Source: Henricia sp. BOLD:AAB3569
Taxonomy: Eukaryota > Echinodermata > Asteroidea > Spinulosida > Echinasteridae
Assembly: GCA_037783545.1 (NCBI GenBank)
Contig: JBBELK010000489.1
Location: forward strand, 124,001-188,000
DNA length: 64,000 nucleotides
Reading direction: 5' to 3'
Part shown: positions 5,201-41,183 of the stretch, in pieces
Layout: each line of letters opens with the position of its first letter
Position numbering within the stretch: position 1 is the first letter of the stretch
The notes under the pieces: model-generated
The model's input: the letters and a program-made list of their open reading frames with translations, nothing else
What the model was told of the DNA's origin: nothing
Databases searched by the model: none
Made by a program: the position numbers and the translations under genes

Positions 5201-5535
5201 GCCATTTCCCGGCGAAAGTCTGTCATTTTTTTAGGACAAGTGCGCAATATAGAGTCTTTGGAGCATGCAAAATTTGAAGTTCGTCGGAACATTTTTCGAC
5301 CTCCAAATTTGCCGACGTTTGCACCACACTTTGACCAAAATCCCGTCCCAAACTGGGCCGTGTCAACGACAGTCCGAAGGACTGAGCATGCGCACGGGTC
5401 AGGAGTACACCAAAGAGGTGTGTACAGACAGCCACAGGTTGCGGGAGCATCCAGGAAGCGCCAACCCCTTTTTTTCCTAAACTCTGAAATTTCTCTGTCA
5501 TTTCCCGGCGAAAGTCTGTCAATTTTTTAGGACAA
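1694..5535 (+). repeat. HOR, 4-mer of 1182 bp, about 3.25 copies
   Basis: Copies are 1694-2875, 2876-4057 and 4058-5239, and the monomer 5240-5535 starts a fourth. Markers recurring exactly 1182 bp apart are GGGACGTGTC with GTCTGAAGG (monomers 1989, 3171, 4353), TTTCCAGGCG before 2285, 3467 and 4649, and TTTGATGTTCG in 2580, 3762 and 4944. The variant GTTTGCACC is in 2876, 4058 and 5240 but not in 1694, so the left copy is the most different. Copies are otherwise nearly identical by eye. Confidence 0.9.
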
Positions 5536-6036
5536 GTGCGCAATATAGAGTCTTTGGAGCATGCAAAATTTGAAGTTCGTCGGAAAATTTTTCGACCTCC
5601 AAATTTGCCGACGTTTGGACCACACTTTGACCAAAATGCCGTCCCAAACTGGGCCGTGTCAACGACAGTCCGAAGGACTGAGCATGCGCACGAGTCAGGA
5701 GTACACCAAAGAGGTGTGTACAGACAGCCACAGGTTGCGGGAGCATCCAGGAAGCGCCAACCCCTTTTTTTCCTAAACTCTGAAATTTCTCTGCCATTTC
5801 CCGGCGAAAGTCTGTCAATTTGTTAGGACAAGTGCGCAATATAGAGTCTTTGGAGCATGCAAAATTTGAAGTTCGTCGGAAAATTTTTCGACCTCCAAAT
5901 TTGCCGACGTTTGGACCACACTTTGACCAAAATCCCGTCCCAAACTGGGCCGTGTCAACGACAGTCCGAAGGACTGAGCATGCGCACGAGTCAGGAGTAC
6001 ACCAAAGAGGTGTGTACAGACAGCCACAGGTTGCGG

Positions 6037-6070
6037 GAGCATCCAGGAAGCGCGAGCATCCAGGAAGCGC
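6037..6070 (+). repeat. 17-bp tandem duplication inside a monomer, copy 1
   Basis: GAGCATCCAGGAAGCGC occurs twice without a gap (6037-6053 and 6054-6070). The normal monomer has one copy. Confidence 0.95.
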
Positions 6071-7832: not shown

Positions 7833-7866
7833 GAGCATCCAGGAAGCGCGAGCATCCAGGAAGCGC
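7833..7866 (+). repeat. 17-bp tandem duplication inside a monomer, copy 2
   Basis: The same duplicated 17-mer is at 7833-7849 and 7850-7866. The base pattern just before it differs (TTGCGAGAGC here, TTGCGGGAGC elsewhere), so this copy has since mutated. Confidence 0.95.
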
Positions 7867-9629
7867 CAACCCCTTTTTTTCCTAAACTCTGAAATTTCTC
7901 TGTCATTTCCCGGCGAAAGTCTGTCAATTTTTTTAGGACAAGTGCGCAATATAGAGTCTTTGGAGCATGCAAAATTTGAAGTTCGTCGGAAAATGTTTCG
8001 ACCTCCAAATTTGCCGACGTTTGGACCACACTTTGACCAAAATCCCGTCCCAAACTGGGCCGTGTCAACGACAGTCCGAAGGACTGAGCATGCGCACGAG
8101 ACAGGAGTACACCAAAGAGGTGTGTACAGACAGCCACAGGTTGCGGGAGCATCCAGGAAGCGCCAACCCCTTTTTTTCCTAAACTCTGAAATTTCTCTGT
8201 CATTTCCCGGCGAAAGTCTGTCAATTTTTTAGGACAGGTGCGCAATATAGAGTATTTGGAGCATGCAAAAGTTGAAGTTCGTCGGAACATTTTTCGACCT
8301 CCAAATTTGCCGACGTTTGGACCACACTTTGACCAAAATCCCGTCCCAAACTGGGCCGTGTCAACGACAGTCCGAAGGACTGAGCATGCGCACGAGTCAG
8401 GAGTACACCAAAGAGGTGTGTACAGACAGCCACAGGTTGCGGGAGCATCCAGGAAGCGCCAACCCTCTTTTTTTCCTAAACTCTGAAATTTCTCTGCCAT
8501 TTCCCGGCGAAAGTCTGTCAATTTTTTAGGACAAGTGCGCAATATAGAGTCTTTGGAGCATGCAAAATTTGAAGTTCGTCGGAAAATGTTTCGACCTCCA
8601 AATTTGCCGACGTTTGGACCACACTTTGACCAAAATCCCGTCCCAAACTGGGCCGTGTCAACGACAGTCCGAAGGACTGAGCATGCGCACGAGTCAGGAG
8701 TACACCAAAGAGGTGTGTACAGACAGCCACAGGTTGCGGGAGCATCCAGGAAGCGCCAACCCCTTTTTTTCCTAAACTCTGAAATTTCTCTGTCATTTCC
8801 CGGCGAAAGTCTGTCAATTTTTTTAGGACAAGTGCGCAATATAGAGTCTTTGGAGCATGCAAAATTTGAAGTTCGTCGGAAAATGTTTCGACCTCCAAAT
8901 TTGCCGACGTTTGGACCACACTTTGACCAAAATCCCGTCCCAAACTGGGCCGTGTCAACGACAGTCCGAAGGACTGAGCATGCGCACGAGTCAGGAGTAC
9001 ACCAAAGAGGTGTGTACAGACAGCCACAGGTTGCGGGAGCATCCAGGAAGCGCCAACCCTCTTTTTTTCCTAAACTCTGAAATTTCCCTGCCATTTCCCT
9101 GCGAAAGTCTGTCAATTTTTTAGGACGAGTGCGCAATATAGAGTCTTTGGGGCATGCAAAATTTGAAGTTCGTCGGAAAATTTTTCGACCTCCAAACTTG
9201 CCGACGTTTGGACCACACTTTGACCAAAATCCCGTCCCAAACTGGGCCGTGTCAACGACAGTCCGAAGGACTGAGCATGCGCACGAGTCAGGAGTACACC
9301 AAAGTGGTGTGTACAGACAGCCACAGGTTGCGGGAGCATCCAGGAAGCGCCAACCCCTTGTTTTCCTAAACTATGAAATTTCTCTTCCATTTCCCGGCGA
9401 AAGTCTGTCATTTGTTTAGGACAAGTGCGCAATATAGAGTCTTTGGAGCATGCAAAATTTGAAGTTCGTCGGAAAATTTGTCGACCTCCAAATTTGCCGA
9501 CGTTTGGACCACACTTTGACCAAAATCCCGTCCCAAACTGGGCCGTGTCAACGACAGTCCGAAGGACTGAGCATGCGCACGAGTCAGGAGTACACCAAAG
9601 AGGTGTGTACAGACAGCCACAGGTTGCGG

Positions 9630-9663
9630 GAGCATCCAGGAAGCGCGAGCATCCAGGAAGCGC
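9630..9663 (+). repeat. 17-bp tandem duplication inside a monomer, copy 3
   Basis: The same duplicated 17-mer is at 9630-9646 and 9647-9663, 1797 bp from copy 2. Its monomer also has AAATTTGTCGACC, a variant shared with the unduplicated monomer at 10332. Confidence 0.95.
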
Positions 9664-9738
9664 CAACCCCTTTTTTTCCTAAACTCTGAAATTTCTCTGT
9701 CATTTCCCGGCGAAAGTCTGTCAATTTTTTTAGGACAA

Positions 9739-11515
9739 GTGCGCAATATAGAGTCTTTGGAGCATGCAAAATTTGAAGTTCGTCGGAAAATGTTTCGACC
9801 TCCAAATTTGCCGACGTTTGGACCACACTTTGACCAAAATCCCGTCCCAAACTGGGCCGTGTCAACGACAGTCCGAAGGACTGAGCATGCGCACAAGTCA
9901 GGAGTACACCAAAGAGGTGTGTACAGACAGCCACAGGTTGCGGGAGCATCCAGGAAGCGCCAACCCCTTTTTTTTCCTAAACTCTGAAATTTCTCTGTCA
10001 TTTCCCGGCGAAAGTCTGTCAATTTTTTAGGACAGGTGCGCAATATAGAGTCTTTGGAGCATGCAAAATTTGAAGTTCGTCGGAACATTTTTCGACCTCC
10101 AAATTTGCCGACGTTTGGACCACACTTTGACCAAAATCCCGTCCCAAACTGGGCCGTGTCAACGACAGTCCGAAGGACTGAGCATGCGCACGAGTCAGGA
10201 GTACACCAAAGAGGTGTGTACAGACAGCCACAGGTTGCGGGAGCATCCAGGAAGCGCCAACCCCTTTTTTTCCTAAACTATGAAATTTCTCTTCCATTTC
10301 CCGGCGAAAGTCTGTCATTTGTTTAGGACAAGTGCGCAATATAGAGTCTTTGGAGCATGCAAAATTTGAAGTTCGTCGGAAAATTTGTCGACCTCCAAAT
10401 TTGCCGACGTTTGGACCACACTTTGACCAAAATCCCGTCCCAAACTGGGCCGTGTCAACGACAGTCCGAAGGACTGAGCATGCGCACGAGTCAGGAGTAC
10501 ACCAAAGAGGTGTGTACAGACAGCCACAGGTTGCGGGAGCATCCAGGAAGCGCCAACCCCTTTTTTTCCTAAACTCTGAAATTTCTCTGCCATTTCCCGG
10601 CGAAAGTCTGTCAATTTTTTAGGACAAGTGCGCAATATAGAGTCTTTTGAGCATGCAAAATTTGAAGTTCGTCGGAAAATTTTTCGACCTCCAAATTTGC
10701 CGACGTTTGGACCACACTTTGACCAAAATCCCGTCCCAAACTGGGCCGTGTCAACGACAGTCCGAAGGACTGAGCATGCGCACGAGTCAGGAGTACACCA
10801 AAGAGGTGTGTACAGACAGCCACAGGTTGCGGGAGCATCCAGGAAGCGCCAACCCCTTTTTTTCCTAAACTCTGAAATTTCTCTGCCATTTCCCGGCGAA
10901 AGTCTGTCAATTTTTTAGGACAAGTGCGCAATATAGAGTCTTTTGAGCATGCAAAATTTGAAGTTCGTCGGAAAATTTTTCGACCTCCAAATTTGCCGAC
11001 GTTTGGACCACACTTTGACCAAAATCCCGTCCCAAACTGGGCCGTGTCAACGACAGTCCGAAGGACTGAGCATGCGCACGAGTCAGGAGTACACCAAAGA
11101 GGTGTGTACAGACAGCCACAGGTTGCGGGAGCATCCAGAAAGCGCCAACCCCTTTTTTTCCTAAACTCTGAAATTTCTCTGCCATTTCCCGGCGAAAGTC
11201 TGTCAATTTTTTAGGACGAGTGCGCATTATAGAGTCTTTGGGGCATGCAAAATTTGAAGTTCGTCGGAAAATTTTTCGACCTCCAAACTTGCCGACGTTT
11301 GGACCACACTTTGACCAAAATCCCGTCCCAAACTGGGCCGTGTCAACGACAGTCCGAAGGACTGAGCATGCGCACGAGTCAGGAGTACACCAAAGATGTG
11401 TGTACAGACAGCCACAGGTTGCGGGAGCATCCAGGAAGCGTCAACCCCTTTTTTTCCTAAACTCTGAAATTTCTCTGTCATTTCCCGGCGAAAGTCTGTC
11501 ATTTTTTTAGGACAA
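9739..11515 (+). repeat. A monomers with local pairs of near-identical copies
   Basis: Monomers 10628 and 10924 share the rare AGTCTTTTGAGC and differ at only a few bases, so they look like a recent single-monomer duplication. Monomer 11220 shares GGACGAGTGCG, TTTGGGGC and CCAAACTTGCC with monomer 9129, 2091 bp (seven monomers) upstream. Monomers 9425 and 10332 share AAATTTGTCGACC. These shared rare variants suggest a larger duplication, since disrupted. Confidence 0.7.
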
Positions 11516-11557
11516 GTGCGCAATATAGAGTCTTTGGAGCATGCAAAATTTGAAGTT

Positions 11558-11593
11558 CGTCGGAAAATTTTTCGACCTCCAAATTTGCCGACG
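11558..11593. other. Monomer-internal inverted repeat (13-bp arms, 10-bp loop)
   Basis: The left arm CGTCGGAAAATTT and right arm AAATTTGCCGACG pair at 12 of 13 positions around TTCGACCTCC. The same structure recurs in nearly every A monomer (for example 259-294) and, with two mismatches, in nearly every B monomer (for example 20256-20291 and 41333-41368). Inside it lies a second, near-perfect 18-bp palindrome, GTCGGAAAATTTTTCGAC, with one mismatched pair. It sits in the longest stretch shared between subfamilies. Protein binding or cruciform formation is possible but not shown. Confidence 0.75.
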
Positions 11594-11645
11594 TTTGGAC
11601 CACACTTTGACCAAAATCCCGTCCCAAACTGGGCCGTGTCAACGA

Positions 11646-11660
11646 CAGTCCGAAGGACTG
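11646..11660. other. Small perfect dyad CAGTCC-GAA-GGACTG
   Basis: A 6-bp perfect stem with a 3-base loop, repeated in most A monomers. In B it survives with one mismatch (CAGTCATTCGGACTG on the given strand). It is the site of the 8-bp deletion that makes the 289-bp B variants, which removes one arm. Confidence 0.7.
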
Positions 11661-12699
11661 AGCATGCGCACGGGTCAGGAGTACACCAAAGAGGTGTGTA
11701 CAGACAGCCACAGGTTGCGGGAGCATCCAGGAAGCGCCAACCCCTTTTTTTCCTAAACTCTGAAATTTCTCTGCCATTTCCCGGCGAAAGTCTGTCATTT
11801 TTTTAGGACAAGTGCGCAATATAGAGTCTTTGGAGCATGCAAAATTTGAAGTTCGTCGGAAAATTTTTCGACCTCCAAATTTGCCGACGTTTGGACCACA
11901 CTTTGACCAAAATCCCGTCCCAAACTGGGCCGTGTCAACGACAGTCCGAAGGACTGAGCATGCGCACGGGTCAGGAGTACACCAAAGAGGTGTGTACAGA
12001 CAGCCACAGGTTGCGGGAGCATCCAGGAAGCGCCAACCCCTTTTTTTCCTAAACTCTGAAATTTCTCTGCCATTTCCCGGCGAAAGTCTGTCAATTATTT
12101 AGGACAAGTGCGCAATATAGAGTCTTTGGAGCATGCCAAATTTGAAGTTCGTCGGAAAATTTTTCGACCTCCAAATTTGCCGACGTTTGGACCACACTTT
12201 GACCAAAATCCCGTCCCAAACTGGGCCGTGTCAACGACAGTCCGAAGGACTGAGCATGCGCACGGGTCAGGAGTACACCAAAGAGGTGTGTACAGACAGC
12301 CACAGGTTGCGGGAGCATCCAGGAAGCGCCAACCCCTTTTTTTCCTAAACTCTGAAATTTCTCTGCCATTTCCCGGCGAAAGTCTGTCAATTATTTAGGA
12401 CAAGTGCGCAATATAGAGTCTTTGGAGCATGCCAAATTTGAAGTTCGTCGGAAAATTTTTCGACCTCCAAATTTGCCGACGTTTGGACCACACTTTGACC
12501 AAAATCCCGTCCCAAACTGGGCCGTGTCAACGACAGTCCGAAGGACTGAGCATGCGCACGAGTCAGGAGTACACCAAAGAGGTGTGTACAGACAGCCACA
12601 GGTTGCGGGAGCATCCAGGAAGCGCCAACCCCTTTTTTTCCTAAACTCTGAAATTTCTCTGTCATTTCCCGGCGAAAGTCTGTCAATTTTTTAGGACAA

Positions 12700-14474
12700 G
12701 TGCGCAATATAGAGTCTTTGGAGCATGCAAAATTTGAAGTTCGTCGGAAAATGTTTCGACCTCCAAATTTGCCGACGTTTGGACCACACTTTGACCAAAA
12801 TCCCGTCCCAAACTGGGCCGTGTCAACGACAGTCCGAAGGACTGAGCATGCGCACGAGTCAGGAGTACACCAAAGAGGTGTGTACAGACAGCCACAGGTT
12901 GCGGGAGCATCCAGGAAGCGCCAACCCCTTTTTTCCTAAACTCTGAAATTTCTCTGTCATTTCCCGGCGAAAGTCTGTCATTTTTTTAGGACAAGTGCGC
13001 AATATAGAGTCTTTGGAGCATGCAAAATTTGAAGTTCGTCGGAAAATTTTTCGACCTCCAAATTTGCCGACGTTTGGACCACACTTTGACCAAAATCCCG
13101 TCCCAAACAGGGCCGTGTCAACGACAGTCCGAAGGACTGAGCATGCGCACGAGTCAGGAGTACACCAAAGAGGTGTGTACAGACAGCCACAGGTTGCGGG
13201 AGCATCCAGGAAGGGCCAACCCCTTTTTTTCCTAAACTCTGAAATTTCTCTGCCATTTCCCGGCGAAAGTCTGTCATTTTTTTAGGACAAGTGCGCAATA
13301 TAGAGTCTTTGGAGCATGCAAAATTTGAAGTTCGTCGGAACATTTTTCGACCTCCAAATTTGCCGACGTTTGGACCACACTTTGACAAAAATCCCGTCCC
13401 AAACTGGGCCGTGTCAACGACAGTCCGAAGGACTGAGCATGCGCACGAGTCAGGAGTACACCAAAGAGGTGTGTACAGACAGCCACAGGTTGCGGGAGCA
13501 TCCAGGAAGCGCCAACCCCTTTTTTTCCTAAACTCTGAAATTTCTCTGCCATTTCCCGGCGAAAGTCTGTCATTTTTTTAGGACAAGTGCGCAATATAGA
13601 GTCTTTGGAGCATGCAAAATTTGAAGTTCGTTGGAACATTTTTCGACCTCCAAATTTGCCGACGTTTGGACCACACTTTGACCAAAATCCCGTCCCAAAC
13701 TGAGCCGTGTCAACGACAGTCCGAAGGACTGAGCATGCGCACGAGTCAGGAGTACACCAAAGAGGTGTGTACAGACAGCCACAGGTTGCGGGAGCATCCA
13801 GGAAGCGCCAACCCATTTTTTTCCTAAACTCTGAAATTTCTCTGTCATTTCCCGGCGAAAGTCTGTCAATTTTTTAGGACAAGTGCGCAATATAGAGTCT
13901 TTGGAGCATGCAAAATTTGAAGTTCGTCGGAACATTTTTCGACCTCCAAATTTGCCGACGTTTGGACCACACTTTGACCAAAATCCCGTCCCAAACTGGG
14001 CCGTGTCAACGACAGTCCGAAGGACTGAGCATGCGCACGAGTCAGGAGTACACCAAAGAGGTGTGTACAGACAGCCACAGGTTGCGGGAGCATCCAGGAA
14101 GCGCCAACCCCTTTTTTTCCTAAACTCTGAAATTTATCTGCCATTTCCCGGCGAAAGTCTGTCAATTTTTTAGGACAAGTGCGCAATATAGAGTCTTTGG
14201 AGCATGCAAAATTTAAAGTTCGTCGGAAAATTTTTCGACCTCCAAATTTGCCGACGTTTGGACCACACTTTGACCAAAATCCCGTCCCAAACTGAGCCGT
14301 GTCAACGACAGTCCGAAGGACTGAGCATGCGCACGAGTTAGGAGTACACCAAAGAGGTGTGTACAGACAGCCACAGGTTGCGGGAGCATCCAGGAAGCGC
14401 CAACCCCTTTTTTTCCTAAACTCTGAAATTTCTCTGTCATTTCCCGGCGAAAGTCTGTCAATTTTTTAGGACAA
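12700..14474 (+). repeat. Ordinary A monomers, no clear HOR
   Basis: Six monomers (12700, 12995, 13291, 13587, 13883, 14179) with private or widely shared variants, and no repeating order that I can see. Monomer 13587 contains GTTCGTTGGAAC in place of the usual GTTCGTCGGAA. Monomer 14179 has TTTAAAGTTCG and GAGTTAGG. Nothing non-satellite is present. Confidence 0.8.
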
Positions 14475-16250
14475 GTGCGCAATATAGAGTCTTTGGAGCA
14501 TGCAAAATTTGAAGTTCGTCGGAAAATGTTTCGACCTCCAAATTTGCCGACGTTTGGACCACACTTTGACCAAAATCCCGTCCCAAACTGGGCCGTGTCA
14601 ACGACAGTCCGAAGGACTGAGCATGCGCACGAGTCAGGAGTACACCAAAGAGGTGTGTACAGACAGCCACAGGTTGCGGGAGCATACAGGAAGCGCCAAC
14701 CCCTTTTCTTCCTAAACTCTGAAATTTCTCTGCCATTTCCCGGCGAAAGTCTGTCAATTTTTTAGGACAAGTGCGCAATATAGAGTCTTTGGAGCATGCA
14801 AAATTTGAAGTTCGTCGGAAAATTTTTCGACCTCCAAATTTGCCGACGTTTGGACCACACTTTGACCAAAATCCCGTCCCAAACTGAGCCGTGTCAACGA
14901 CAGTCCGAAGGACTGAGCATGCGCACGAGTCAGGAGTACACCAAAGAGGTGTGTACAGACAGCCACAGGTTGCGGGAGCATCCAGGAAGCGCCAACCCCT
15001 TTTTTTCCTAAACTCTGAAATGTCTCTGTCATTTCCCTGCGAAAGTCTGTCAATTTTTTAGGACAAGTGCGCAATATAGAGTCTTCGGAGCATGCAAAAT
15101 TTGAAGTTCGTCGGAACATTTTTCGACCTCCAAATTTGCCGACGTTTGGACCACACTTTGACCAAAATCCCGTCCCAAACTGGGCCGTGTCAACGACAGT
15201 CCGAAGGACTGAGCATGCGCACGAGTCAGGAGTACACCAAAGAGGTGTGTACAGACAGCCACAGGTTGCGGGAGCATCCAGGAAGCGCCAACCCCTTTTT
15301 TTCCTAAACTCTGAAATTTCTCTGCCATTTCCCGGCGAAAGTCTGTCATTTTTTTAGGACAAGTGCGCAATATAGAGTCTTTGGAGCATGCAAAATTTGA
15401 AGTTCGTCGGAAAATGTTTCGACCTCCAAATTTGCCGACGTTTGGACCACACTTTGACCAAAATCCCGTCCCAAACTGGGCCGTGTCAACGACAGTCCGA
15501 AGGACTGAGCATGCGCACGAGTCAGGAGTACACCAAAGAGGTGTGTACAGACAGCCACAGGTTGCGGGAGCATACAGGAAGCGCCAACCCCTTTTCTTCC
15601 TAAACTCTGAAATTTCTCTGCCATTTCCCGGCGAAAGTCTGTCAATTTTTTAGGACAAGTGCGCAATATAGAGTCTTTGGAGCATGCAAAATTTGAAGTT
15701 CGTCGGAAAATTTTTCGACCTCCAAATTTGCCGACGTTTGGACCACACTTTGACCAAAATCCCGTCCCAAACTGAGCCGTGTCAACGACAGTCCGAAGGA
15801 CTGAGCATGCGCACGAGTCAGGAGTACACCAAAGAGGTGTGTACAGACAGCCACAGGTTGCGGGAGCATCCAGGAAGCGCCAACCCCTTTTTTTCCTAAA
15901 CTCTGAAATGTCTCTGTCATTTCCCTGCGAAAGTCTGTCAATTTTTTAGGACAAGTGCGCAATATAGAGTCTTCGGAGCATGCAAAATTTGAAGTTCGTC
16001 GGAACATTTTTCGACCTCCAAATTTGCCGACGTTTGGACCACACTTTGACCAAAATCCCGTCCCAAACTGGGCCGTGTCAACGACAGTCCGAAGGACTGA
16101 GCATGCGCACGAGTCAGGAGTACACCAAAGAGGTGTGTACAGACAGCCACAGGTTGCGGGAGCATCCAGGAAGCGCCAACCCCTTTTTTTCCTAAACTCT
16201 GAAATTTCTCTGCCATTTCCCGGCGAAAGTCTGTCATTTTTTTAGGACAA
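14475..16250 (+). repeat. HOR, 3-mer of 888 bp, two copies
   Basis: Copies are 14475-15362 and 15363-16250. Shared markers are GCATACAGG and CCCCTTTTCTTCC (first monomer), GAAATGTCTCTGTC and TTTCCCTGCG (second), and AGTCTTCGGAGC (third). The copies look essentially identical, so this is among the youngest duplications in block A. The flanking monomers 14179 and 16251 are not part of it. Confidence 0.92.
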
Positions 16251-17434
16251 GTGCGCAATATAGAGTCTTTGGAGCATGCAAAATTTGAAGTTCGTCGGAA
16301 CATTTTTCGACCTCCAAATTTGCCGACGTTTGGACCACACTTTGACCAAAATCCCGTCCCAAACTGGGCCGTGTCAACGACAGTCCGAAGGACTGAGCAT
16401 GCGCACGAGTCAGGAGTACACCAAAGAGGTGTGTACAGACAGCCACAGGTTGCGGGAGCATCCAGGAAGCGCCAACCCCTTTCTTTCCTAAACTCTGAAA
16501 TTTCTCTGCCATTTCCCGGCGAAAGCCTGTCAATTTTTTAGGACAAGTGCGCAATATAGAGTCTTTGGAGCATGCAAAATTTGAAGTTCGTCGGAAAATT
16601 TTTCGACCTCCAAATTTGCCGACGTTTGGACCACACTTTGACCAAAATCCCGTCCCAAACTGGGCCGTGTCAACGACAGTCCGAAGGACTGAGCATGCGC
16701 ACGAGTCAGGAGTACACCAAAGAGGTGTGTACAGACAGCCACAGGTTGCGGGAGCATCCAGGAAGCGCCAACCCCTTTTTTCCTAAACTCTGAAATTTCT
16801 CTGCCATTTCCCGGCGAAAGTCTGTCAATTTTTTAGGACAAGTGCGCAATATAGAGTCTTTGGAGCATGCAAAATTTGAAGTTCGTCGGAAAATTTTTCG
16901 ACCTCCAAATTTGCCGACGTTTGGACCACACTTTGACCAAAATCCCGTCCCAAACTGAGCCGTGTCAACGACAGTCCGAAGGACTGAGCATGCGCACGAG
17001 TCAGGAGTACACCAAAGAGGTGTGTACAGACAGCCACAGGTTGCGGGAGCATCCAGGAAGCGCCAACCCCTTTTTTTCCTAAACTCTGAAATTTCTCTGT
17101 CATTTCCCGGCGAAAGTCTGTCAATTATTTTAGGACAAGTGCGCAATATAGAGTCTTTGGAGCATGCAAAATTTGAAGTTCGTCGGAAAAATTTTAGACC
17201 TCCAAATTTGCCGACGTTTGGACCACACTTTGACCAAAATCCCGTCCCAAACTGGGCCGTGTCAACGACAGTCCGAAGGACTGAGCATGCGCACGAGTCA
17301 GGAGTACACCAAAGAGGTGTGTACAGACAGCCACAGGTTGCGGGAGCATCCAGGAAGCGCCAACCCCTTTTTTTCCTAAACTCTGAAATTTCTCTTCCAT
17401 TTCTCGGCGAAAGTCTGTCAATTTTTTAGGACAA
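16251..17434 (+). repeat. Ordinary A monomers, no clear HOR
   Basis: Monomers 16251, 16547, 16842 and 17139. The CTTTCTTTCC variant near 16485 and GGAAAAATTTTAGACC near 17187 are private. TCAATTATTTTAGG before 17139 reappears before 18620 and 19804, linking it to the next HOR. Confidence 0.8.
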
Positions 17435-19955
17435 GTGCGCAATATAGAGTCTTTGGAGCATGCAAAATTTGAAGTTCGTCGGAAAATTTTTCGACCTCCA
17501 AATTTGCCGACGTTTAGACCACACTTTGACCAAAATCCCGTCCCAAACTGGGCCGTATCAACGACAGTCCGAAGGACTGAGCATGCGCACGAGTCAGGAG
17601 TACACCAAAGAGGTGTGTACAGACAGCCACAGGTTGCGGGAGCATCCAGGAAGCGCCAACCCCTTTTTTCCTAAACTCTGAAATTTCTCTGCCATTTCCC
17701 GGCGAAAGTATGTCATTTTTTTTAGGACAAGTGCGCAATATAGAGTCTTTGGAGCATGCAAAATTTGAAGTTCGTCGGAAAGTTTTTCAACCTCCAAATT
17801 TTCCGACGTTTGGACCACACTTTGACCAAAATCCCGTTCCAAACTGGGCCGTGTCAACGACAGTCCGAAGGACTGAGCATGTGCACGAGTCAGGAGTACA
17901 CCAAAGAGGTGTGTACAGACAGCCACAGGTTGCGGGAGCATCCAGGAAGCGCCAACCCCTTTTTTTCCTAAACTCTGAAATTTCTCTGTCATTTCCCGGC
18001 GAAAGTCTGTCAATTTTTTAGGACAAGTGCGCAATATAGAGTCTTTGGAGCATGCAAAATTTGAAGTTCGTCGGAAAATTTTTCGACCTCCAAATTTGCC
18101 GACGTTTAGACCACACTTTGACCAAAATCCCGTCCCAAACTGGGCCGTGTCAACGACAGTCCGAAAGACTGAGCATGCGCACGAGTCAGGAGTACACCAA
18201 AGAGGTGTGTACAGACAGCCACAGGTTGCGGGAGCATCCAGGAAGCGCCAACCCCTTTTTTCCTAAACTCTGAAATTTCTCTGCCATTTCCCGGCGAAAG
18301 TATGTCATTTTTTTTAGGACAAGTGCGCAATATAGAGTCTTTGGAGCATTCAAAATTTGAAGTTCGTCGGAAAGTTTTTCAACCTCCAAATTTTCCGACG
18401 TTTGGACCACACTTTGACCAAAATCCCGTCCCAAACTGGGCCGTGTCAACGACAGTCCGAAGGACTGAGCATGCGCACGAGTCAGGAGTACACCAAAGAG
18501 GTGTGTACAGACAGCCACAGGTTGCGGGAGCATCCAGGAAGCGCCAACCCCTTTTTTTCCTAAACTCTGAAATTTCTCTGTCATTTCCCGGCGAAAGTCT
18601 GTCAATTATTTTAGGACAAGTGCGCAATATAGAGTCTTTGGAGCATGCAAAATTTGAAGTTCGTCGGAAAATATTTCGACCTCCAAATTTGCCGACGTTT
18701 GGACCACACTTTGACCAAAATCCCGTCCCAAACTGGGCCGTGTCAACGACAGTCCGAAGGACTGAGCATGCGCACGAGTCAGGAGTACACCAAAGAGATG
18801 TGTACAGACAGCCACAGGTTGCGGGAGCATCCAGGAAGCGCCAACCCCTTTTTTTCCTAAACTCTGAAATTTCTCTGTCATTTCTCGGCGAAAGTCTGTC
18901 AATTTTTTAGGACAAATGCGCAATATAGAGTCTTTGGAGCATGCAAAATTTGAAGTTCGTCGGAAAATTTTTCGACCTCCAAATTTGCCGACGTTTGGAC
19001 CACACTTTGACCAAAATCCCGTCCCAAACTGGGCCGTGTCAACGACAGTCCGAAGGACTGAGCATGCGCATGAGTCAGGAGTACACCAAAGAGGTGTGTA
19101 CAGACAGCCACAGGTTGCGGGAGCATCCAGGAAGCGCCAACCCCTTTTTTTCCTAAACTCTGAAATTTCTCTGCCATTTCCCGGCGAAAGTCTGTCAATT
19201 TTTTAGGACAAGTGCGCAATATAGAGTCTTTGGAGCATGCAAAATTTGAAGTTCGTCGAAAAGTTTTCGACCTCCAAATTTGCCGACGTTTGGACCACAT
19301 TTTGACCAAAATCCCGTCCCAAACTGGGCCGTGTCAACGACAGTCCGAAGGACTGAGCATGCGCACGAGTCAGGAGTACACCAAAGAGGTGTGTACAGAC
19401 AGCCACAGGTTGCGGGAGCATCCAGGAAGCGCCAACCCCTTTTTTCCTAAACTCTGAAATTTCTCTGCCATTTCTCGGCGAAAGTATGTCATTTTTTTTA
19501 GGACAAGTGCGCAATATAGAGTCTTTGGAGCATGCAAAATTTGAAGTTCGTCGGAAAGTTTTTCAACCTCCAAATTTGCCGACGTTTGGACCACACTTTG
19601 ACCAAAATCCCGTCCCAAACTGGGCCGTGTCAACGACAGTCCGAAGGACTGAGCATGCGCACGAGTCAGGAGTACTCCAAAGAGGTGTGTACAGACAGCC
19701 ACAGGTTGCGGGAGCATCCAGGAAGCGCCAACCCCTTTTTTTCCTAAACTCTGAAATTTCTCTGTCATTTCCCGGCGAAAGTCTGTCAATTATTTTAGGA
19801 CAAGTGCGCAATATAGAGTCTTTGGAGCATGCAAAATTTGAAGTTCGTCGGAAAATATTTCGACCTCCAAATTTGCCGACGTTTGGACCACACTTTGACC
19901 AAAATCCCGTCCCAAACTGGGCCGTGTCAACGACAGTCCGAAGGACTGAGCATGC
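17435..19955 (+). repeat. HOR, 2-mer of 592 bp expanding to 4-mer of 1184 bp, next to the junction
   Basis: Dimer 17435/17731 recurs as 18027/18323. The first of each pair has GACGTTTAGACC. The second has GTATGTCATTTTTTTT before it and AAGTTTTTCAACC with AAATTTTCCGACG. The 18323/18620 pair recurs 1184 bp later as 19507/19804, with TCAATTATTTTAGG and GGAAAATATTTCG. The HOR is cut by the orientation switch at 19955. Confidence 0.85.
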
Positions 19956-20106
19956 AAACGTCGGCAAATTTGGAGGTCGAAAAATGTTCCGACGAACTTC
20001 AAATTTTGCATGCCCTAAACTCTCTATATTGCGCACTTGTCATAAAAAATTGACAGACTTTCGCCGGGAAATGGCAGAGAAATTTCAAAGTTTAGAAAAA
20101 ACTGGG
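19804..20106. repeat. Head-to-head junction between blocks A and B (imperfect palindrome)
   Basis: The last A monomer (19804-19955, 152 bp) stops after CTGAGCATGC. The next base begins AAACGTCGGC, the interior of a reversed B monomer (19956-20106, 151 bp). The GCATGC palindrome at 19950-19955 is the last A sequence. The two sides share only one base (C) of microhomology across the break. The sequence ending at 19884 (GCCGACGTTT) is the reverse complement of that starting at 19956, so arms continue outward in both directions around a 71-bp spacer (19885-19955). The arms are subfamily A on the left and B on the right, so they are related but not identical. Confidence 0.95.
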
Positions 20107-20998
20107 TTGAGGCTTCCTGACTGCTCTCACGCAAACCGTGGCTATCTGTACACACCTCTTTGGGGTACTCCTGAGTTGTGCGCATGCTCAGTCATTCGGA
20201 CTGTCGTTAACGCACCGCAGTTTGGCTCGGCAATTTGGTCAAAGTGTGGTCCAAACGTCGGCAAATTTGGAGGTCGAAAAATGTTCCGACGAACTTCAAA
20301 TTTTGCATGCCCTAAACTCTCTATATTGCGCACTTGTCATAAAAAATTGACAGACTTTCGCCGGGAAATGGCAGAGAAAGTTCAAAGTTTAGAAAAAACT
20401 GGGTTGAGGCTTCCTGACTGCTCTCACGCAAACCGTGGCTGTCTGTACACACCTCTTTGGGGTACTCCTGAGTTGTGCGCATGCTCAGTCATTCGGACTG
20501 TCGTTAACGCACCGCAGTTTGGCTCGGCAATTTGGTCAAAGTGTGGTCCAAACGTCGGCAAATTTGGAGGTCGAAAAATGTTCCGACGAACTTCAAATTT
20601 TGCATGCCCTAAACTCTCTATATTGCGCACTTGTCGTAAAAAATTGACAGACTTTCGCCGGGAAATGGCAGAGAAATTTCAAAGTTTAGAAAAAACTGGG
20701 TTGAGGCTTCCTGACTGTTCTCACGCAAACCGTGGCTGTCTGTACACACCTCTTTGGGGTACTCCTGAGTTGTGCGCATGCTCAGTCATTCGGACTGTCG
20801 TTAACGCACCGCAGTTTGGCTCGGCAATTTGGTCAAAGTGTGGTCCAAACGTCGGCAAATTTGGAGGTCGAAAAATGTTCCGACGAACTTCAAATTTTGC
20901 ATGCCCTAAACTCTCTATATTGCGCACTTGTCATAAAAAATTGACAGACTTTCGCCGGGAAATGGCAGAGAAATTTCAAAGTTTAGAAAAAAACTGGG
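19956..20998 (-). repeat. First B monomers after the junction
   Basis: A partial monomer (19956-20106), then monomers 20107, 20404 and 20701. Monomer 20107 has GTGGCTATCTG where others have GTGGCTGTCTG. The monomer at 20404 ends with TTGTCGTAAAAAATTG. They are ordinary subfamily B from the first base, with no gradient from A toward B. Confidence 0.85.
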
Positions 20999-22781
20999 TT
21001 GAGGCTTCCTGACTGCTCTCACGCAAACCGTGGCTGTCTGTACACACCTCTTTGGGGTACTCCTGAGTTGTGCGCATGCTCAGTCATTCGGACTGTCGTT
21101 AACGCACCGCAGTTTGGCTCGGCAATTTGGTCAAAGTGTGGTCCAAACGTCGGCAAATTTGGAGGTCGAAAAATGTTCCGACGAACTTCAAATTTTGCAT
21201 GCACTAAACTCTCTATATTGCACACTTGTCATAAAAAATTGACAGACTTTCGCTGGGAAATGGCAGAGAAATGTCAAAGTTTAGAACAAACTGGGTTGAG
21301 GCTTCCTGACTGCTCTCACGCAAACCGTGGCTGTCTGTACACACCTCTTTGGGGTACTCCTGAGTTGTGCGCATGCTCAGTCATTCGGACTGTCGTTAAC
21401 GCACCGCAGTTTGGCTCGGCAATTTGGTCAAAGTGTGGTCCAAACGTCGGCAAATTTGGAGGTCGAAAAATGTTCCGACGAACTTCAAATTTTGCATGCC
21501 CTAAACTCTCTATATTGCGCACTTGTCATAACAAATTGACAGACTTTCGCCGGGAAATGGCAGAGAAATTTCAAAGTTTAGAAAAAACTGGGTTGAGGCT
21601 TCCTGACTGCTCTCACGCAAACCGTGGCTGTCTGTACACACCTCTTTGGGGTACTCCTGAGTTGTGCGCATGCTCAGTCATTCGGACTGTCGTTAACGCA
21701 CCGCAGTTTGGCTCGGCAATTTGGTCAAAGTGTGGTCCAAACGTCGGCAAATTTGGAGGTCGAAAAATGTTCCGACGAACTTCAAATTTTGCATGCCCTA
21801 AACTCTCTATATTGCGCACTTGTCATAAAAAATTGACAGACTTTCGCCGGGAAATGGCAGAGAAATTTCAAAGTTTAGAAAAAACTGGGTTGAGGCTTCC
21901 TGACTGCTCTCACGCAAACCGTGGCTGTCTGTACACACCTCTTTGGGGTACTCCTGAGTTGTGCGCATGCTCAGTCATTCGGACTGTCGTTAACGCACCG
22001 CAGTTTGGCTCGGCAATTTGGTCAAAGTGTGGTCCAAACGTCGGCAAATTTGGAGGTCGAAAAATGTTCCGACGAACTTCAAATTTTGCATGCCCTAAAC
22101 TCTCTATATTGCGCACTTGTCATAACAAATTGACAGACTTTCGCCGGGAAATGGCAGAGAAATTTCAAAGTTTAGAAAAAAACTGGGTTGAGGCTTCCTG
22201 ACTGCTCTCACGCAAACCGTGGCTGTCTGTACACACCTCTTTGGGGTACTCCTGAGTTGTGCGCATGCTCAGTCATTCGGACTGTCGTTAACGCACCGCA
22301 GTTTGGCTCGGCAATTTGGTCAAAGTGTGGTCCAAACGTCGGCAAATTTGGAGGTCGAAAAATGTTCCGACGAACTTCAAATTTTGCATGCACTAAACTC
22401 TCTATATTGCACACTTGTCATAAAAAATTGACAGACTTTCGCTGGGAAATGGCAGAGAAATGTCAAAGTTTAGAACAAACTGGGTTGAGGCTTCCTGACT
22501 GCTCTCACGCAAACCGTGGCTGTCTGTACACACCTCTTTGGGGTACTCCTGAGTTGTGCGCATGCTCAGTCATTCGGACTGTCGTTAACGCACCGCAGTT
22601 TGGCTCGGCAATTTGGTCAAAGTGTGGTCCAAACGTCGGCAAATTTGGAGGTCGAAAAATGTTCCGACGAACTTCAAATTTTGCATGCACTAAACTCTCT
22701 ATATTGCACACTTGTCATAAAAAATTGACAGACTTTCGCTGGGAAATGGCAGAGAAATGTCAAAGTTTAGAACAAACTGGG
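20999..22781 (-). repeat. HOR, 4-mer of 1189 bp
   Basis: Monomers 20999, 22188 and 22485 share GCATGCACTAAAC, TATTGCACACTTG, TTTCGCTGGG and GTTTAGAACAAAC. Monomers 21296 and 21890 share TTGTCATAACAAATTG. The spacing from 20999 to 22188 is 1189 bp. The marker monomer at 22188 was then duplicated singly to 22485. Confidence 0.85.
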
Positions 22782-24563
22782 TTGAGGCTTCCTGACTGCT
22801 CTCACGCAAACCGTGGCTGTCTGTACACACCTCTTTGGGGTACTCCTGAGTTGTGCGCATGCTCAGTCATTCGGACTGTCGTTAAAGCACCGCAGTTTGG
22901 CTCGGCAATTTGGTCAAAGTGTGGTCCAAACGTCGGCAAATTTGGAGGTCGAAAAATGTTCCGACGAACTTCAAATTTTGCATGCCCTAAACTCTCTATA
23001 TTGCGCACTTGTCATAAAAAATTGACAGACTTTCGCCGGGAAATGGCAGAGAAATTTCAAAGTTTAGAAAAAACTGGGTTGAGGCTTCCTGACTGCTCTC
23101 ACGCAAACCGTGGCTGTCTGTACACACCTCTTTGGGGTACTCCTGAGTTGTGCGCATGCTCAGTCATTCGGACTGTCGTTAACGCACCGCAGTTTGGCTC
23201 GGCAATTTGGTCAAAGTGTGGTCCAAACGTCGGCAAATTTGGAGGTCGAAAAATGTTCCGACGAACTTCAAATTTTGCATGCCCTAAACTCTCTATATTG
23301 CGCACTTGTCATAAAAAATTGACAGACTTTCGCCGGGAAATGGCAGAGAAATTTCAAAGTTTAGAAAAAACTGGGTTGAGGCTTCCTGACTGCTCTCACG
23401 CAAACCGTGGCTGTCTGTACACACCTCTTTGGGGTACTCCTGAGTTGTGCGCATGCTCAGTCATTCGGACTGTCGTTAACGCACCGCAGTTTGGCTCGGC
23501 AATTTGGTCAAAGTGTGGTCCAAACGTCGGCAAATTTGGAGGTCGAAAAATGTTCCGACGAACTTCAAATTTTGCATGCCCTAAACTCTCTATATTGCGC
23601 ACTTGTCATAAAAAATTGACAGACTTTCGCCGGGAAATGGCAGAGAAATTTCAAAGTTTAGAAAAAAATGGGTTGAGGCTTCCTGACTGCTCTCACGCAA
23701 ACCGTGGCTGTCTGTACACACCTCTTTGGGGTACTCCTGAGTTGTGCGCATGCTCAGTCATTCGGACTGTCGTTAACGCACCGCAGTTTGGCTCGGCAAT
23801 TTGGTCAAAGTGTGGTCCAAACGTCGGCAAATTTGGAGGTCGAAAAATGTTCCGACGAACTTCACATTTTGCATGCCCTAAACTCTCTATATTGCGCACT
23901 TGTCATAAAAAATTGACAGACTTTCGCCGGGAAATGGCAAAGAAATTTCAAAGTTTAGAAAAAAATGGGTTGAGGCTTCCTGACTGCTCTCACGCAAACC
24001 GTGGCTGTCTGTACACACCTCTTTGGGGTACTCCTGAGTTGTGCGCATGCTCAGTCATTCGGACTGTCTTTAACGCACCGCAGTTTGGCTCGGCAATTTG
24101 GTCAAAGTGTGGTCCAAACGTCGGCAAATTTGGAGGTCGAAAAATGTTCCGACAAACTTCAAATTTTGCATGCCCTAAACTCTCTATATTGCGCACTTGT
24201 CATAAAAAATTGACAGACTTTCGCCGGGAAATGGCAGAGAAATTTCAAAGTTTAGAAAAAACTGGGTTGAGGCTTCCTGACTGCTCTCACGCAAACCGTG
24301 GCTGTCTGTACACACCTCTTTGGGGTACTCCTGAGTTGTGCGCATGCTCAGTCATTCGGACTGTCGTTAACGCACCGCAGTTTGGCTCGGCAATTTGGTC
24401 AAAGTGTGGTCCAAACGTCGGCAAATTTGGAGGTCGAAAAATGTTCCGACGAACTTCAAATTTTGCATGCCCTAAACTCTCTATATTGCGCACTTGTCAT
24501 AAAAAATTGACAGACTTTCGCCGGGAAATGGCAGAGAAATTTCAAAGTTTAGAAAAAACTGGG
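22782..24563 (-). repeat. B monomers including a marked dimer
   Basis: Monomers 22782-23672 are ordinary. Dimer 23673-24266 is marked by CTTCACATTTTGC and GGCAAAGAAATT in the first monomer, and ACTGTCTTTAACG with CCGACAAACTTC in the second. The same pair recurs at 34654-35247, 35545-36138 and 36733-37327, over 10 kb away, which shows long-range copying within the block. Confidence 0.8.
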
Positions 24564-26343
24564 TTGAGGCTTCCTGACTGCTCTCACGCAAACCGTGGCT
24601 GTCTGTACACACCTCTTTGGGGTACTCCTGAGTTGTGCGCATGCTCAGTCATTCGGACTGTCGTTAACGCACCGCAGTTTGGCTCGGCAATTTGGTCAAA
24701 GTGTGGTCCAAACGTCGGCAAATTTGGAGGTCGAAAAATGTTCCGACGAACTTCAAATTTTGCATGCCCTAAACTCTCTATATTGCGCACTTGTCATAAA
24801 AAATTGACAGACTTTCGCCGGGAAATGAAGAGAAATTTCAAAGTTTAGAAAAAACTGGGTTGAGGCTTCCTGACTGCTCTCACGCAAACCGCGGCTGTCT
24901 GTACACACCTCTTTGGGGTACTCCTGAGTTGTGCGCATGCTCAGTCATTCGGACTGTCGTTAACGCACCGCAGTTTGGCTCGGCAATTTGGTCAAAGTGT
25001 GGTCCAAACGTCGGCAAATTTGGAGGTCGAAAAATGTTCCGACGAACTTCAAATTTTGCATGCCCTAAACTCTCTATATTGCGCACTTGTCATAAAAAAT
25101 TGACAGACTTTCGCCGGGAAATGGCAGAGAAATTTCAAAGTTTAGAAAAAACTGGGTTGAGGCTTCCTGACTGCTCTCACGCAAACCGTGGCTGTCTGTA
25201 CACACCTCTTTGGGGTACTCCTGAGTTGTGCGCATGCTCAGTCATTCGGACTGTCGTTAACGCACCGCAGTTTGGCTCGGCAATTTGGTCAAAGTGTGGT
25301 CCAAACGTCGGCAAATTTGGAGGTCGAAAAATGTTCCGACGAACTTCAAATTTTGCATGCCCTAAACTCTCTATATTGCGCACTTGTCATAAAAAATTGA
25401 CAGACTTTCGCCGGGAAATGGCAGAGAAATTTCAAAGTTTAGAAAAAACTGGATTGAGGCTTCCTGACTGCTCTCACGCAAACCGTGGCTGTCTGTACAC
25501 ACCTCTTTGGGGTACTCCTGAGTTGTGCGCATGCTCAGTCATTCGGACTGTCGTTAACGCACCGCAGTTTGGCTCGGCAATTTGGTCAAAGTGTGGTCCA
25601 AACGTCGGCAAATTTGGAGGTCGAAAAATGTTCCGACGAACTTCAAATTTTGCATGCCCTAAACTCTCTATATTGCGCACTTGTCATAAAAAATTGACAG
25701 ACTTTCGCCGGGAAATGAAGAGAAATTTCAAAGTTTAGAAAAAACTGGGTTGAGGCTTCCTGACTGCTCTCACGCAAACCGCGGCTGTCTGTACACACCT
25801 CTTTGGGGTACTCCTGAGTTGTGCGCATGCTCAGTCATTCGGACTGTCGTTAACGCACCGCAGTTTGGCTCGGCAATTTGGTCAAAGTGTGGTCCAAACG
25901 TCGGCAAATTTGGAGGTCGAAAAATGTTCCGACGAACTTCAAATTTTGCATGCCCTAAACTCTCTATATTGCGCACTTGTCATAAAAAATTGACAGACTT
26001 TCGCCGGGAAATGGCAGATAAATTTCAAAGTTTAGAAAAAACTGGGTTGAGGCTTCCTGACTGCTCTCACGCAAACCGTGGCTGTCTGTACACACCTCTT
26101 TGGGGTACTCCTGAGTTGTGCGCATGCTCAGTCATTCGGACTGTCGTTAACGCACCGCAGTTTGGCTCGGCAATTTGGTCAAAGTGTGGTCCAAACGTCG
26201 GCAAATTTGGAGGTCGAAAAATGTTCCGACGAACTTCAAATTTTGCATGCCCTAAACTCTCTATATTGCGCACTTGTCATAAAAAATTGACAGACTTTCG
26301 CCGGGAAATGGCAGAGAAATTTCAAAGTTTAGAAAAAACTGGA
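24564..26343 (-). repeat. HOR, 3-mer of 890 bp, two copies
   Basis: Copies are 24564-25453 and 25454-26343. Both first monomers have GGGAAATGAAGAG (one base short of GGGAAATGGCAGAG). Both second monomers have CAAACCGCGGCTG, and each copy is followed by CTGGATTGAGG. Confidence 0.85.
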
Positions 26344-29300
26344 TTGAGGCTTCCTGACTGCTCTCACGCAAACCGTGGCTGTCTGTACACACCTCTTTGG
26401 GGTACTCCTGAGTTGTGCGCATGCTCAGTCATTCGGACTGTCGTTAACGCACCGCAGTTTGGCTCGGCAATTTGGTCAAAGTGTGGTCCAAACGTCGGCA
26501 AATTTGGAGGTCGAAAAATGTTCCGACGAACTTCAAATTTTGCATGCCCTAAACTCTCTATATTGCGCACTTGTCATAAAAAATTGACAGACTTTCGCCG
26601 GGAAATGGCAGAGAAATTTCAAAGTTTAGAAAAAAATGGGTTGAGGCTTCCTGACTGCTCTCACGCAAACCGTGGCTGTCTGTACACACCTCTTTGGGGT
26701 ACTCCTGAGTTGTGCGCATGCTCAGTCATTCGGACTGTCTTTAACGCACCGCAGTTTGGCTCGGCAATTTGGTCAAAGTGTGGTCCAAACGTCGGCAAAT
26801 TTGGAGGTCGAAAAATGTTCCGACGAACTTCAAATTTTGCATGCCCTAAACTCTCTATATTGCGCACTTGTCATAAAAAATTGACAGACTTTCGCCGGGA
26901 AATGGCAGAGAAATTTCAAAGTTTAGAAAAAACTGGGTTGAGGCTTCCTGACTGCTCTCACGCAAACCGTGGCTGTCTGTACACACCTCTTTGGGGTACT
27001 CCTGAGTTGTGCGCATGCTCAGTCATTCGGACTGTCGTTAACGCACCGCAGTTTGGCTCGGCAATTTGGTCAAAGTGTGGTCCAAACGTCGGCAAATTTG
27101 GAGGTCGAAAAATGTTCCGACGAACTTCAAATTTTGCATGCCCTAAACTCTCTATATTGCGCACTTGTCATAAAAAATTGACAGACTTTCGCCGGGAAAT
27201 GGCAGAGAAATTTCAAAGTTTAGAAAAAACTGGGTTGAGGCTTCCTGACTGCTCTCACGCAAACCGCGGCTGTCTGTACACACCTCTTTGGGGTACTCCT
27301 GAGTTGTGCGCATGCTCAGTCATTCGGACTGTCGTTAACGCACCGCAGTTTGGCTCGGCAATTTGGTCAAAGTGTGGTCCAAACGTCGGCAAATTTGGAG
27401 GTCGAAAAATGTTCCGACGAACTTCAAATTTTGCATGCCCTAAACTCTCTATATTGCGCACTTGTCATAAAAAATTGACAGACTTTCGCCGGGAAATGGC
27501 AGAGAAATTTCAAAGTTTAAAAAAAACTGGGTTGAGGCTTCCTGACTGCTCTCACGCAAACCGTGGCTGTCTGTACACACCTCTTTGGGGTACTCCTGAG
27601 TTGTGCGCATGCTCAGTCATTCGGACTGTCGTTAACGCACCGCAGTTTGGCTCGGCAATTTGGTCAAAGTGTGGTCCAAACGTCGGCAAATTTGGAGGTC
27701 GAAAAATGTTCCGACGAACTTCAAATTTTGCATGCCCTAAACTCTCTATATTGCGCACTTGTCATAAAAAATTGACAGACTTCGCCGGGAAATGGCAGAG
27801 AAATTTCAAAGTTTAGAAAAAACTGGGTTGAGGCTTCCTGACTGCTCTCACGCAAACGCGGCTGTCTGTACACACCTCTTTGGGGTACTCCTGAGTTGTG
27901 CGCATGCTCAGTCATTCGGACTGTCGTTAACGCACCGCAGTTTGGCTCGGCAATTTGGTCAAAGTGTGGTCCAAACGTCGGCAAATTTGGAGGTCGAAAA
28001 ATGTTCGACGAACTTCAAATTTTGCATGCCCTAAACTCTCTATATTGCGCACTTGTCATAAAAAATTGACAGACTTTCGCCGGGAAATGGCAGAGAAATT
28101 TCAAAGTTTAAAAAAACTGGGTTGAGGCTTCCTGACTGCTCTCACGCAAACCGTGGCTGTCTGTACACACCTCTTTGGGGTACTCCTGAGTTGTGCGCAT
28201 GCTCAGTCATTCGGACTGTCGTTAACGCACCGCAGTTTGGCTCGGCAATTTGGTCAAAGTGTGGTCCAAACGTCGGCAAATTTGGAGGTCGAAAAATGTT
28301 CCGACGAACTTCAAATTTTGCATGCCCTAAACTCTCTATATTGCGCACTTGTCATAAAAAATTGACAGACTTTCGCCGGGAAATGGCAGAGAAATTTCAA
28401 AGTTTAGAAAAAACTGGGTTGAGGCTTCCTGACTGCTCTCACGCAAACCGCGGCTGTCTGTACACACCTCTTTGGGGTACTCCTGAGTTGTGCGCATGCT
28501 CAGTCATTCGGACTGTCGTTAACGCACCGCAGTTTGGCTCGGCAATTTGGTCAAAGTGTGGTCCAAACGTCGGCAAATTTGGAGGTCGAAAAATGTTCCG
28601 ACGAACTTCAAATTTTGCATGCCCTAAACTCTCTATATTGCGCACTTGTCATAAAAAATTGACAGACTTTCGCCGGGAAATGGCAGAGAAATTTCAAAGT
28701 TTAGAAAAAACTGGGTTGAGGCTTCCTGACTGCTCTCACGCAAACCGTGGCTGTCTGTACACACCTCTTTGGGGTACTCCTGAGTTGTGCGCATGCTCAG
28801 TCATTCGGACTGTCGTTAACGCACCGCAGTTTGGCTCGGCAATTTGGTCAAAGTGTGGTCCAAACGTCGGCAAATTTGGAGGTGGTCGAAAAATGTTCCG
28901 ACGAACTTCAAATTTTACATGCCCTAAACTCTCTATATTGCGCACTTGTCATAAAAAATTGACAGACTTTCGCCGGGAAATGGCAGAGAAATTTCAAAGT
29001 TTAGAAAAAACTGGATTGAGGCTTCCTGACTGCTCTCACGCAAACCGTGGCTGTCTGTACACACCTCTTTGGGGTACTCCTGAGTTGTGCGCATGCTCAG
29101 TCATTCGGACTGTCGTTAACGCACCGCAGTTTGGCTCGGCAATTTGGTCAAAGTGTGGTCCAAACGTCGGCAAATTTGGAGGTCGAAAAATGTTCCGACG
29201 AACTTCAAATTTTGCATGCCCTAAACTCTCTATATTGCGCACTTGTCATAAAAAATTGACAGACTTTCGCCGGGAAATGGCAGAGAAATTTCAAAGTTTA

Positions 29301-40886: not shown

Positions 40887-41183
40887 TTGAGGCTTCCTGA
40901 CTGCTCTCACGCAAACCGTGGCTGTCTGTACACACCTCTTTGGGGTACTCCTGAGTTGTGCGCATGCTCAGTCATTCGGACTATCGTTAACGCACCGCAG
41001 TTTGGCTCGGCAATTTGGTCAAAGTGTGGTCCAAACGTCGGCAAATTTGGAGGTCGAAAAATGTTCCGACGAACTTCAAATTTGGCATGCCCTAAACTCT
41101 CTATATTGCGCACTTGTCATAAAAAATTGACAGACTTTCGCCGGGAAATGGCAGAGAAATTTCAAAGTTTAGAAAAAACTGGG

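What the first reader, a model, noticed from the sequence alone, without database searches (positions are those of the whole stretch)
19885..19956. Sharp head-to-head switch between two diverged satellite subfamilies
Seen: orientation and subfamily both change at one base pair (19955/19956), right after GCATGC, with no transition zone. Arms that are reverse complements end at 19884 and begin at 19956, leaving a 71-bp spacer. Because the arms differ by about 10%, a simple fold-back copy of one array cannot explain it. Two arrays that had already diverged were joined, or one was inverted before the subfamilies were homogenised. Inverted satellite junctions are candidate sites for cruciforms, replication stalling and centromere remodelling.
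Basis: partly seen in the sequence, partly recalled or inferred. Interest (0 to 1): 0.75.

Follow-up and report, generated by a model that had tools for sequence, protein, structure and literature searches.

The report
Inverted join between two satellite blocks
Two already different versions of one very abundant tandem repeat meet here back to back; the join is probably real, but it is one of several such rearrangement scars in this genome and not a new kind of element.

Summary
At window 19955/19956 a 296-bp satellite array (A, +) meets a 297-bp array (B, -), with a 71-bp spacer after GCATGC and arms about 12% different. One shared base leaves the break ambiguous by 1 bp. A and B are genome-wide subfamilies: 41,649 and 142,709 word hits, about 7.4% of a 741-Mb assembly. 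None of 609 classified monomers is chimeric.

It is not unique in kind. An equally sharp direct-orientation A/B switch occurs on C953. Spaced-word searches found 30 head-to-head places (about 22 distinct) and 15 tail-to-tail; two other events also switch subfamily (C1036=C1307, C286). This exact junction is single-copy, unlike Tribolium's conserved inversion sites.

Best explanation: inversion or ectopic end-joining of two already diverged blocks, with 1 nt of microhomology. A-side monomers beside the join carry extra private substitutions, as expected at a standing array edge. No reads were available; misassembly is less likely but not excluded. Any cruciform or centromere role is untested.

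The parts
1..19955 (+). Subfamily A array, 296-bp monomer; in the contig it runs C489:94215-143955, about 50 kb, next to non-satellite DNA
19588..19884 (+). Last complete A monomer (297 bp), about 88% identical to the reverse complement of the first B monomer
19885..19955 (+). 71-bp spacer: first 71 bp of a truncated A monomer, ending in GCATGC
19934..19948 (+). Small perfect hairpin CAGTCC-GAA-GGACTG of the A unit, 7 bp before the break
   Evidence: read by eye
19955..19956 (.). Break point: A(+) to B(-); 1 nt (C) fits either side
19956..20252 (-). First complete B monomer (297 bp)
19956..64000 (-). Subfamily B array, 297-bp monomer; continues to the contig end at C489:246494 with three interruptions outside the window
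16923..19884 (+). Last 10 complete A monomers, enriched in private substitutions (11; 2 of 158 ten-monomer blocks, itself included, reach this)

Best explanation
A structural breakpoint inside a large satellite domain. Subfamilies A and B diverged and were homogenised separately (shown: two genome-wide families, no chimeras). A break in an A unit at GCATGC was then joined to a B block in the opposite orientation, with 1 nt of microhomology. This was either one end of an inversion of a segment that once read A(+)|B(+), as C953 still does, or an end-joining or template switch to a B block elsewhere (inferred; the other breakpoint is not in this contig). Because sequences on the two sides now point opposite ways, unequal exchange cannot run across the join, so A monomers beside it have kept private mutations (excess shown; cause inferred). 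The evidence requires no function.
For: Sharp orientation and subfamily switch. Arms only 87-88% identical as reverse complements, so B was not copied from the adjacent A. B continues for about 102 kb with three interruptions, A for about 50 kb. The direct A(+)|B(+) boundary on C953 at 61183/61184 shows the uninverted arrangement. Other head-to-head joins that the script resolved show 1-4 nt of microhomology or a 2-nt insert (C611 1, C787 4, C1656 3, C1802 3, C1671 +2). Another inverted A/B join with a different break lies on two contigs, C1036 and C1307, 99.1% identical over 3.3 kb. In the 10 A monomers next to the join there are 11 private substitutions (2 of 158 blocks reach this, itself included); of 14 private substitutions in the last 10 A and first 5 B monomers 10 are transitions, against 52 of 117 overall; the direct switch on C953 shows no excess. 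Private indels are not in excess there: 1 indel column in the last 10 A monomers against a mean of 0.20 per monomer. The 2-kb bin holding the join has the most private-k-mer events of 77 bins (12, next 8; about one is the join itself).
Against: No reads, so the join itself is not verified. The B-side excess is weak (4 in 10 monomers, 27 of 318 blocks reach it). The raised private-variant count was noticed first and tested afterwards on one junction, and could also mean poor local consensus. The other breakpoint was not found: the predicted reciprocal join is absent from the 36 loci held, a small sample. The flank exists once in the assembly, so there is no second allele to compare.
Confidence: 0.72

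Rival explanations
1. Misassembly: an A block and a B block were wrongly joined, through a chimeric read or an assembly error.
For: Junction seen once; contig ends inside the array; private-variant events peak at the join; several satellite contigs seen are short, e.g. 26-147 kb; some other junctions (C335, C1416) look noisy in their printed ends (by eye).
Against: Arms differ by about 12%, so a palindromic fold-back read cannot make it. Overlap assembly does not join opposite strands without a read that does so (general knowledge). The private changes near the join are substitutions, mostly transitions, with no excess of indels. The same class of join, at another break, is present on two contigs, C1036 and C1307.
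Confidence: 0.17
2. Fold-back duplication of A, after which the inverted arm was overwritten by B through unequal exchange or conversion.
For: Fold-back-like joins with very short spacers do exist here: C642, C753 and C2079 (35-bp near-palindromes) and, by eye, C1870 at the unit's own hairpin.
Against: No chimeric monomers (0 of 609; 0 of 610); the first B monomer at the join is B at 35 of 35 diagnostic columns; the join has only 1 nt of overlap for priming.
Confidence: 0.07
3. A functional element: a selected macro-dyad or cruciform site of the (peri)centromere.
For: The single strand can fold into a very long hairpin. Tribolium species have conserved inversion sites in satellite arrays (PMC13081366, passages read).
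Against: The junction is single-copy, whereas the T. madens inversion types INV_1a and INV_1b were found 2044 and 3486 times at over 98% similarity. The other inverted A/B join that I could read, on C1036 and C1307, uses a different break. No CENP-B box core (motif recalled).
Confidence: 0.04

Closest known systems
Macro-dyad symmetries of Tribolium satellite DNAs (T. madens TmSat1/TmSat2; PMC13081366, search listing and passages including the abstract)
   Same: Abundant satellite with two related forms, sub-arrays in opposite orientation, long imperfect palindromes, boundaries between two satellite forms.
   Different: There the inversion sites and transition zones are a few conserved types repeated thousands of times. 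Here this junction occurs once and the inverted joins found are few and varied.
Inversions within primate alpha-satellite arrays (PMC11062924, passages read)
   Same: Blocks of a centromeric satellite inverted within an array; layers of satellite types side by side.
   Different: Those were checked with ultra-long reads and some are polymorphic; here there are no reads and no second individual, and the position relative to the centromere is unknown.
[quoted passage not shown] PMC10766183, abstract and passages read)
   Same: Inverted joins with short spacers; some other joins in this genome (C642, C753, C2079, C1870) sit, by eye, at short inverted repeats of the unit.
   Different: ODIRA arms are copies of one locus; here the arms are 12% different and the join shows only 1 nt of microhomology.

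Membership tests
Satellite DNA array | Long head-to-tail tandem array, homogenised within the array | tested here: met
   Periods 296 and 297, 97-98% matches; within-array distance 0.01-0.02
Satellite DNA array | High genomic copy number | tested here: met
   41,649 A-word and 142,709 B-word hits at up to 1 mismatch
Satellite macro-dyad (Tribolium type) | Sub-arrays of related repeats in opposite orientation | tested here: met
   A(+) then B(-), arms 87-88% identical
Satellite macro-dyad (Tribolium type) | Conserved inversion site repeated across the genome | tested here: not met
   Junction 28-mer found once at up to 3 mismatches
Satellite macro-dyad (Tribolium type) | Near-equal lengths of the two arms | tested here: inconclusive
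   A about 50 kb; B at least 102 kb, cut by the contig end
Fold-back inverted duplication | Second arm is a copy of the first | tested here: not met
   30 substitutions and 3 gap columns in 298 between consensi; no chimeras
CENP-B-box satellite | TTCGNNNNANNCGGG core (recalled) in the monomers | tested here: not met
   0 exact matches in the window
Centromeric satellite | CENP-A chromatin | not testable with these tools
   No chromatin data

The most novel reading that the evidence does not exclude
Inverted junctions act as barriers to concerted evolution. By blocking unequal exchange they keep two subfamilies of one satellite apart in neighbouring blocks, and a rise in private mutations in the flanking monomers records how long each barrier has stood. 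The one direct-orientation switch examined (C953) lacks the rise. If general, the slope of private variants at such joins would be a molecular clock for satellite rearrangements.
Probability: 0.12. Interest if true: 0.5.

Novelty: new member of a known kind. Interest (0 to 1): 0.27.

Why it matters
Inverted joins between diverged satellite blocks are scars of rearrangement in regions that often stay unassembled. This one is modest alone. That gives a testable link between orientation and homogenisation.

Tried and rejected
Fold-back copy: rejected on divergence and lack of chimeras. Terminal inverted repeats of a mobile element: rejected because both arms are tens of kb of tandem units. Breakpoint hotspot at GCATGC: the A/A join on C611 breaks at the same A base as ours (both end GAGCATGC, 1 nt overlap), but with seven comparable events a shared break position arises in 57% of simulations, so it is not claimed. 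Two-step template switch through the unit's second GCATGCAAA site (one search shows that site): possible, not separable from a 1-nt join. Higher-order structure as an explanation of the switch: only weak lags (A best at 4 and 6 units, B at 13). Second allele: none found in the assembly. Rfam: 0 matches in the window at gathering threshold. Taxon by 18S rRNA: the search failed twice; the organism remains unknown, and one paper search on the two monomer lengths gave one unrelated paper. Pfam on two ORFs beside the array edge: 0 families. Reciprocal inversion join: 0 of 36 loci held.

Full report
What was checked. The window is G000:C489:124001-188000 of a 740.7-Mb assembly in 2104 contigs. The join reads ...GGACTGAGCATGC|AAACGTCGGC... 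with the break at 19955/19956. TRF places one array at 1-19955 (296 bp) and one at 19955-64000 (297 bp), sharing the C at 19955. Consensi of A and B, the latter turned, differ by 30 substitutions and 3 gap columns in 298; mean distances are 0.021 within A, 0.010 within B and 0.110 between. The arms are 87-88% identical as reverse complements over up to 8.9 kb. The DNA strand over 721 nt folds far better than 20 shuffles, which any inverted satellite would do.

Wider context. The contig has 94,214 bp without this satellite, then A(+) 94,215-143,955 (49.7 kb), then B(-) 143,956-246,494, the contig end, with three interruptions. A begins abruptly, with a partial unit 98.6% identical to consensus. 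Words specific for A and for B give 41,649 and 142,709 hits at up to one mismatch. At 296-297 bp each this is about 55 Mb, 7.4% of the assembly; other subfamilies are not counted. So A and B are genome-wide families, not local variants.

Sharpness is not special to the inverted join. On C953 an A(+) array passes into B(+) at 61183/61184, in register, from one monomer to the next. In 609 classified monomers of C489 and C953 none carries five or more diagnostic sites of both families; 9 of 618 units of odd length were dropped. With the first B monomer at our join added it is 0 of 610, while 8 of 610, all of the A array, carry 3-4 B-like sites.

Inverted joins elsewhere. The junction 28-mer occurs once in the assembly at up to three mismatches. 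I then searched for the conserved unit word GCCGACGTTT followed by its reverse complement at limited spacings. Head-to-head: gap 0-60, 3 places; 60-120, 12 places including this one; 200-260, 4 places; 270-330, 17 places, of which 6 recount the three shortest. That is 30 places, about 22 distinct by sequence (my count from the printed ends). Tail-to-tail at gap 240-300: 15 places. These windows cover only part of the possible spacings and need exact words, so the counts are lower bounds; scaling by window width gives very roughly 150 in the genome, an inference. For the 22 distinct head-to-head joins I judged the arms from the 80-nt ends (some by eye because of indels) and from the fetched loci: 16 join like to like, 3 are undecided (C238, C1656, C1802), 3 switch subfamily. 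The three are this one; C1036 and C1307, which carry the same join, B(+)|A(-), i.e. A(+)|B(-) read from the other strand, 99.1% identical over 3.3 kb, the A side 96.6-97.6% like A over its complete units; and C286 (left arm A-like with 4 mismatches in 80, right arm B with none; the break itself is not visible). C489 and C1036 have different breaks.

Microhomology. Of ten head-to-head joins whose whole sequence was visible and which I gave to the script, it resolved six: 1 nt (C489), 1 (C611), 4 (C787), 3 (C1656), 3 (C1802), and a 2-nt insert (C1671). It did not resolve C1870, C642, C753 and C2079. By eye those four sit at short inverted repeats of the unit (CAGTCC-GAA-GGACTG; TTTGG...CCAAA) and look like fold-backs; our join does not. 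C611 shares our A-side break, which chance explains (57% of simulations with seven events).

Is it an artefact? No reads are available. Against a palindromic-read artefact stands the 12% difference of the arms. A further, indirect test is private variants. The 2-kb bin with the join has the most private-k-mer events of 77 bins (12, next 8; about one is the join itself). In the 10 A monomers nearest the join there are 11 private substitutions against a mean of 0.26 per monomer, reached by 2 of 158 blocks, itself included; for the nearest five, 5, reached by 7 of 163. On the B side there are 4 in 10, reached by 27 of 318 blocks, which is weak. At the direct switch of C953 there is no excess (2 in 10 on the A side, 28 of 35 blocks reach it; 3 in 10 on the B side, 12 of 63). 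Of 14 private substitutions near the join (last 10 A, first 5 B monomers) 10 are transitions, against 52 of 117 overall. One search leaves indels out; the last 10 A monomers have 1 private indel column against a mean of 0.20 per monomer, so no excess. This is what an array edge that escapes unequal exchange should look like (the edge effect is recalled theory), and it argues for a real join that has stood for some time. Poor local consensus remains possible, though its errors would more likely be indels. One inverted junction was tested, after the peak had been seen, so this is a lead.

Explanation. Shown: two separately homogenised families meet here in opposite orientation with 1 nt of overlap. 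Inferred: a break in A was joined to an inverted B block, by inversion of a segment or by end joining or template switching. An inversion predicts a reciprocal tail-to-tail A/B join; it is in none of the 36 loci held and could not be searched genome-wide. No function is needed.

Comparison. T. madens (PMC13081366) has satellites in macro-dyad arrangement with inversion sites found 2044 and 3486 times at over 98% similarity; its authors report such symmetries only from Tribolium. Here the arrangement resembles it but the recurrent inversion site is not met. Primate alpha-satellite arrays have inversions, checked there with ultra-long reads (PMC11062924). Seven searches of the paper library listed nothing that I could recognise as this satellite; only searched for its unit lengths, none for its sequence, and the organism is unknown, so this says little.

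Verdict. The implied specialness is not. Interest is low to moderate.

Noticed in passing
window 5913-6226, 7709-8022, 9506-9819: Three 314-bp A monomers with a 17-bp duplication (GCGCGAGCATCCAGGAA), spaced 1796 and 1797 bp, i.e. six units: a local higher-order repeat.
   Followed up: partly
window 40447-62623 (12 monomers): Twelve 289-bp B monomers, 8 bp shorter than the standard unit, all in the right part of the window.
   Followed up: no
C489:194584-195310 (L023) and C489:210969-211695 (L025): A 727-bp interruption of the B array present twice, identical, 16,385 bp apart, so it was copied along with the array; by eye it has an internal short tandem repeat.
   Followed up: partly
C489:223154-224716 (L026 5154-6716): A 1563-bp insert with CACTCTAAAAACTGAAGTG-like inverted ends and TA at its flanks, apparently holding a second nested insert; looks like a DNA transposon (by eye only).
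   Followed up: no
C953:62075-62369 and 63261-63555 (L030): A 295-bp insert with a tRNA B-box-like stretch (motif recalled), twice, 1186 bp apart, close to the direct A/B switch: a SINE-like element amplified with the array.
   Followed up: partly
C1656:17909-18020 and C1802:16143-16254 (printed ends): Inverted joins with the same two break positions (14 and 81) and the same 3-nt overlap occur on C1656 (right arm B, three copies) and C1802 (right arm A, two copies): a recurrent event, or one older than the A/B split. The left arms are too short in print to type.
   Followed up: partly
C642:15757-15791, C753:46765-46799, C2079:52536-52570: Near-perfect 35-bp palindromes at the same point of the unit join same-type arms, once in A and twice in B; either fold-backs at the unit's TTTGG/CCAAA inverted repeat or fold-back read artefacts.
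   Followed up: partly
C390, C541, C892, C1259 (printed ends): By eye, a further subfamily of the same satellite (GGAAGTCAAG..., CAAACAAGACTGAGCATG...) with its own inverted joins.
   Followed up: no
C489:94214/94215 (L019 4214/4215): The A array starts abruptly beside non-satellite DNA; the first units are near standard except one at 94579-94845 with a deletion.
   Followed up: partly
C489:30844-36780 (L013): Long open frames that look like a BEL/Pao-type retroelement (by eye, recalled).
   Followed up: no
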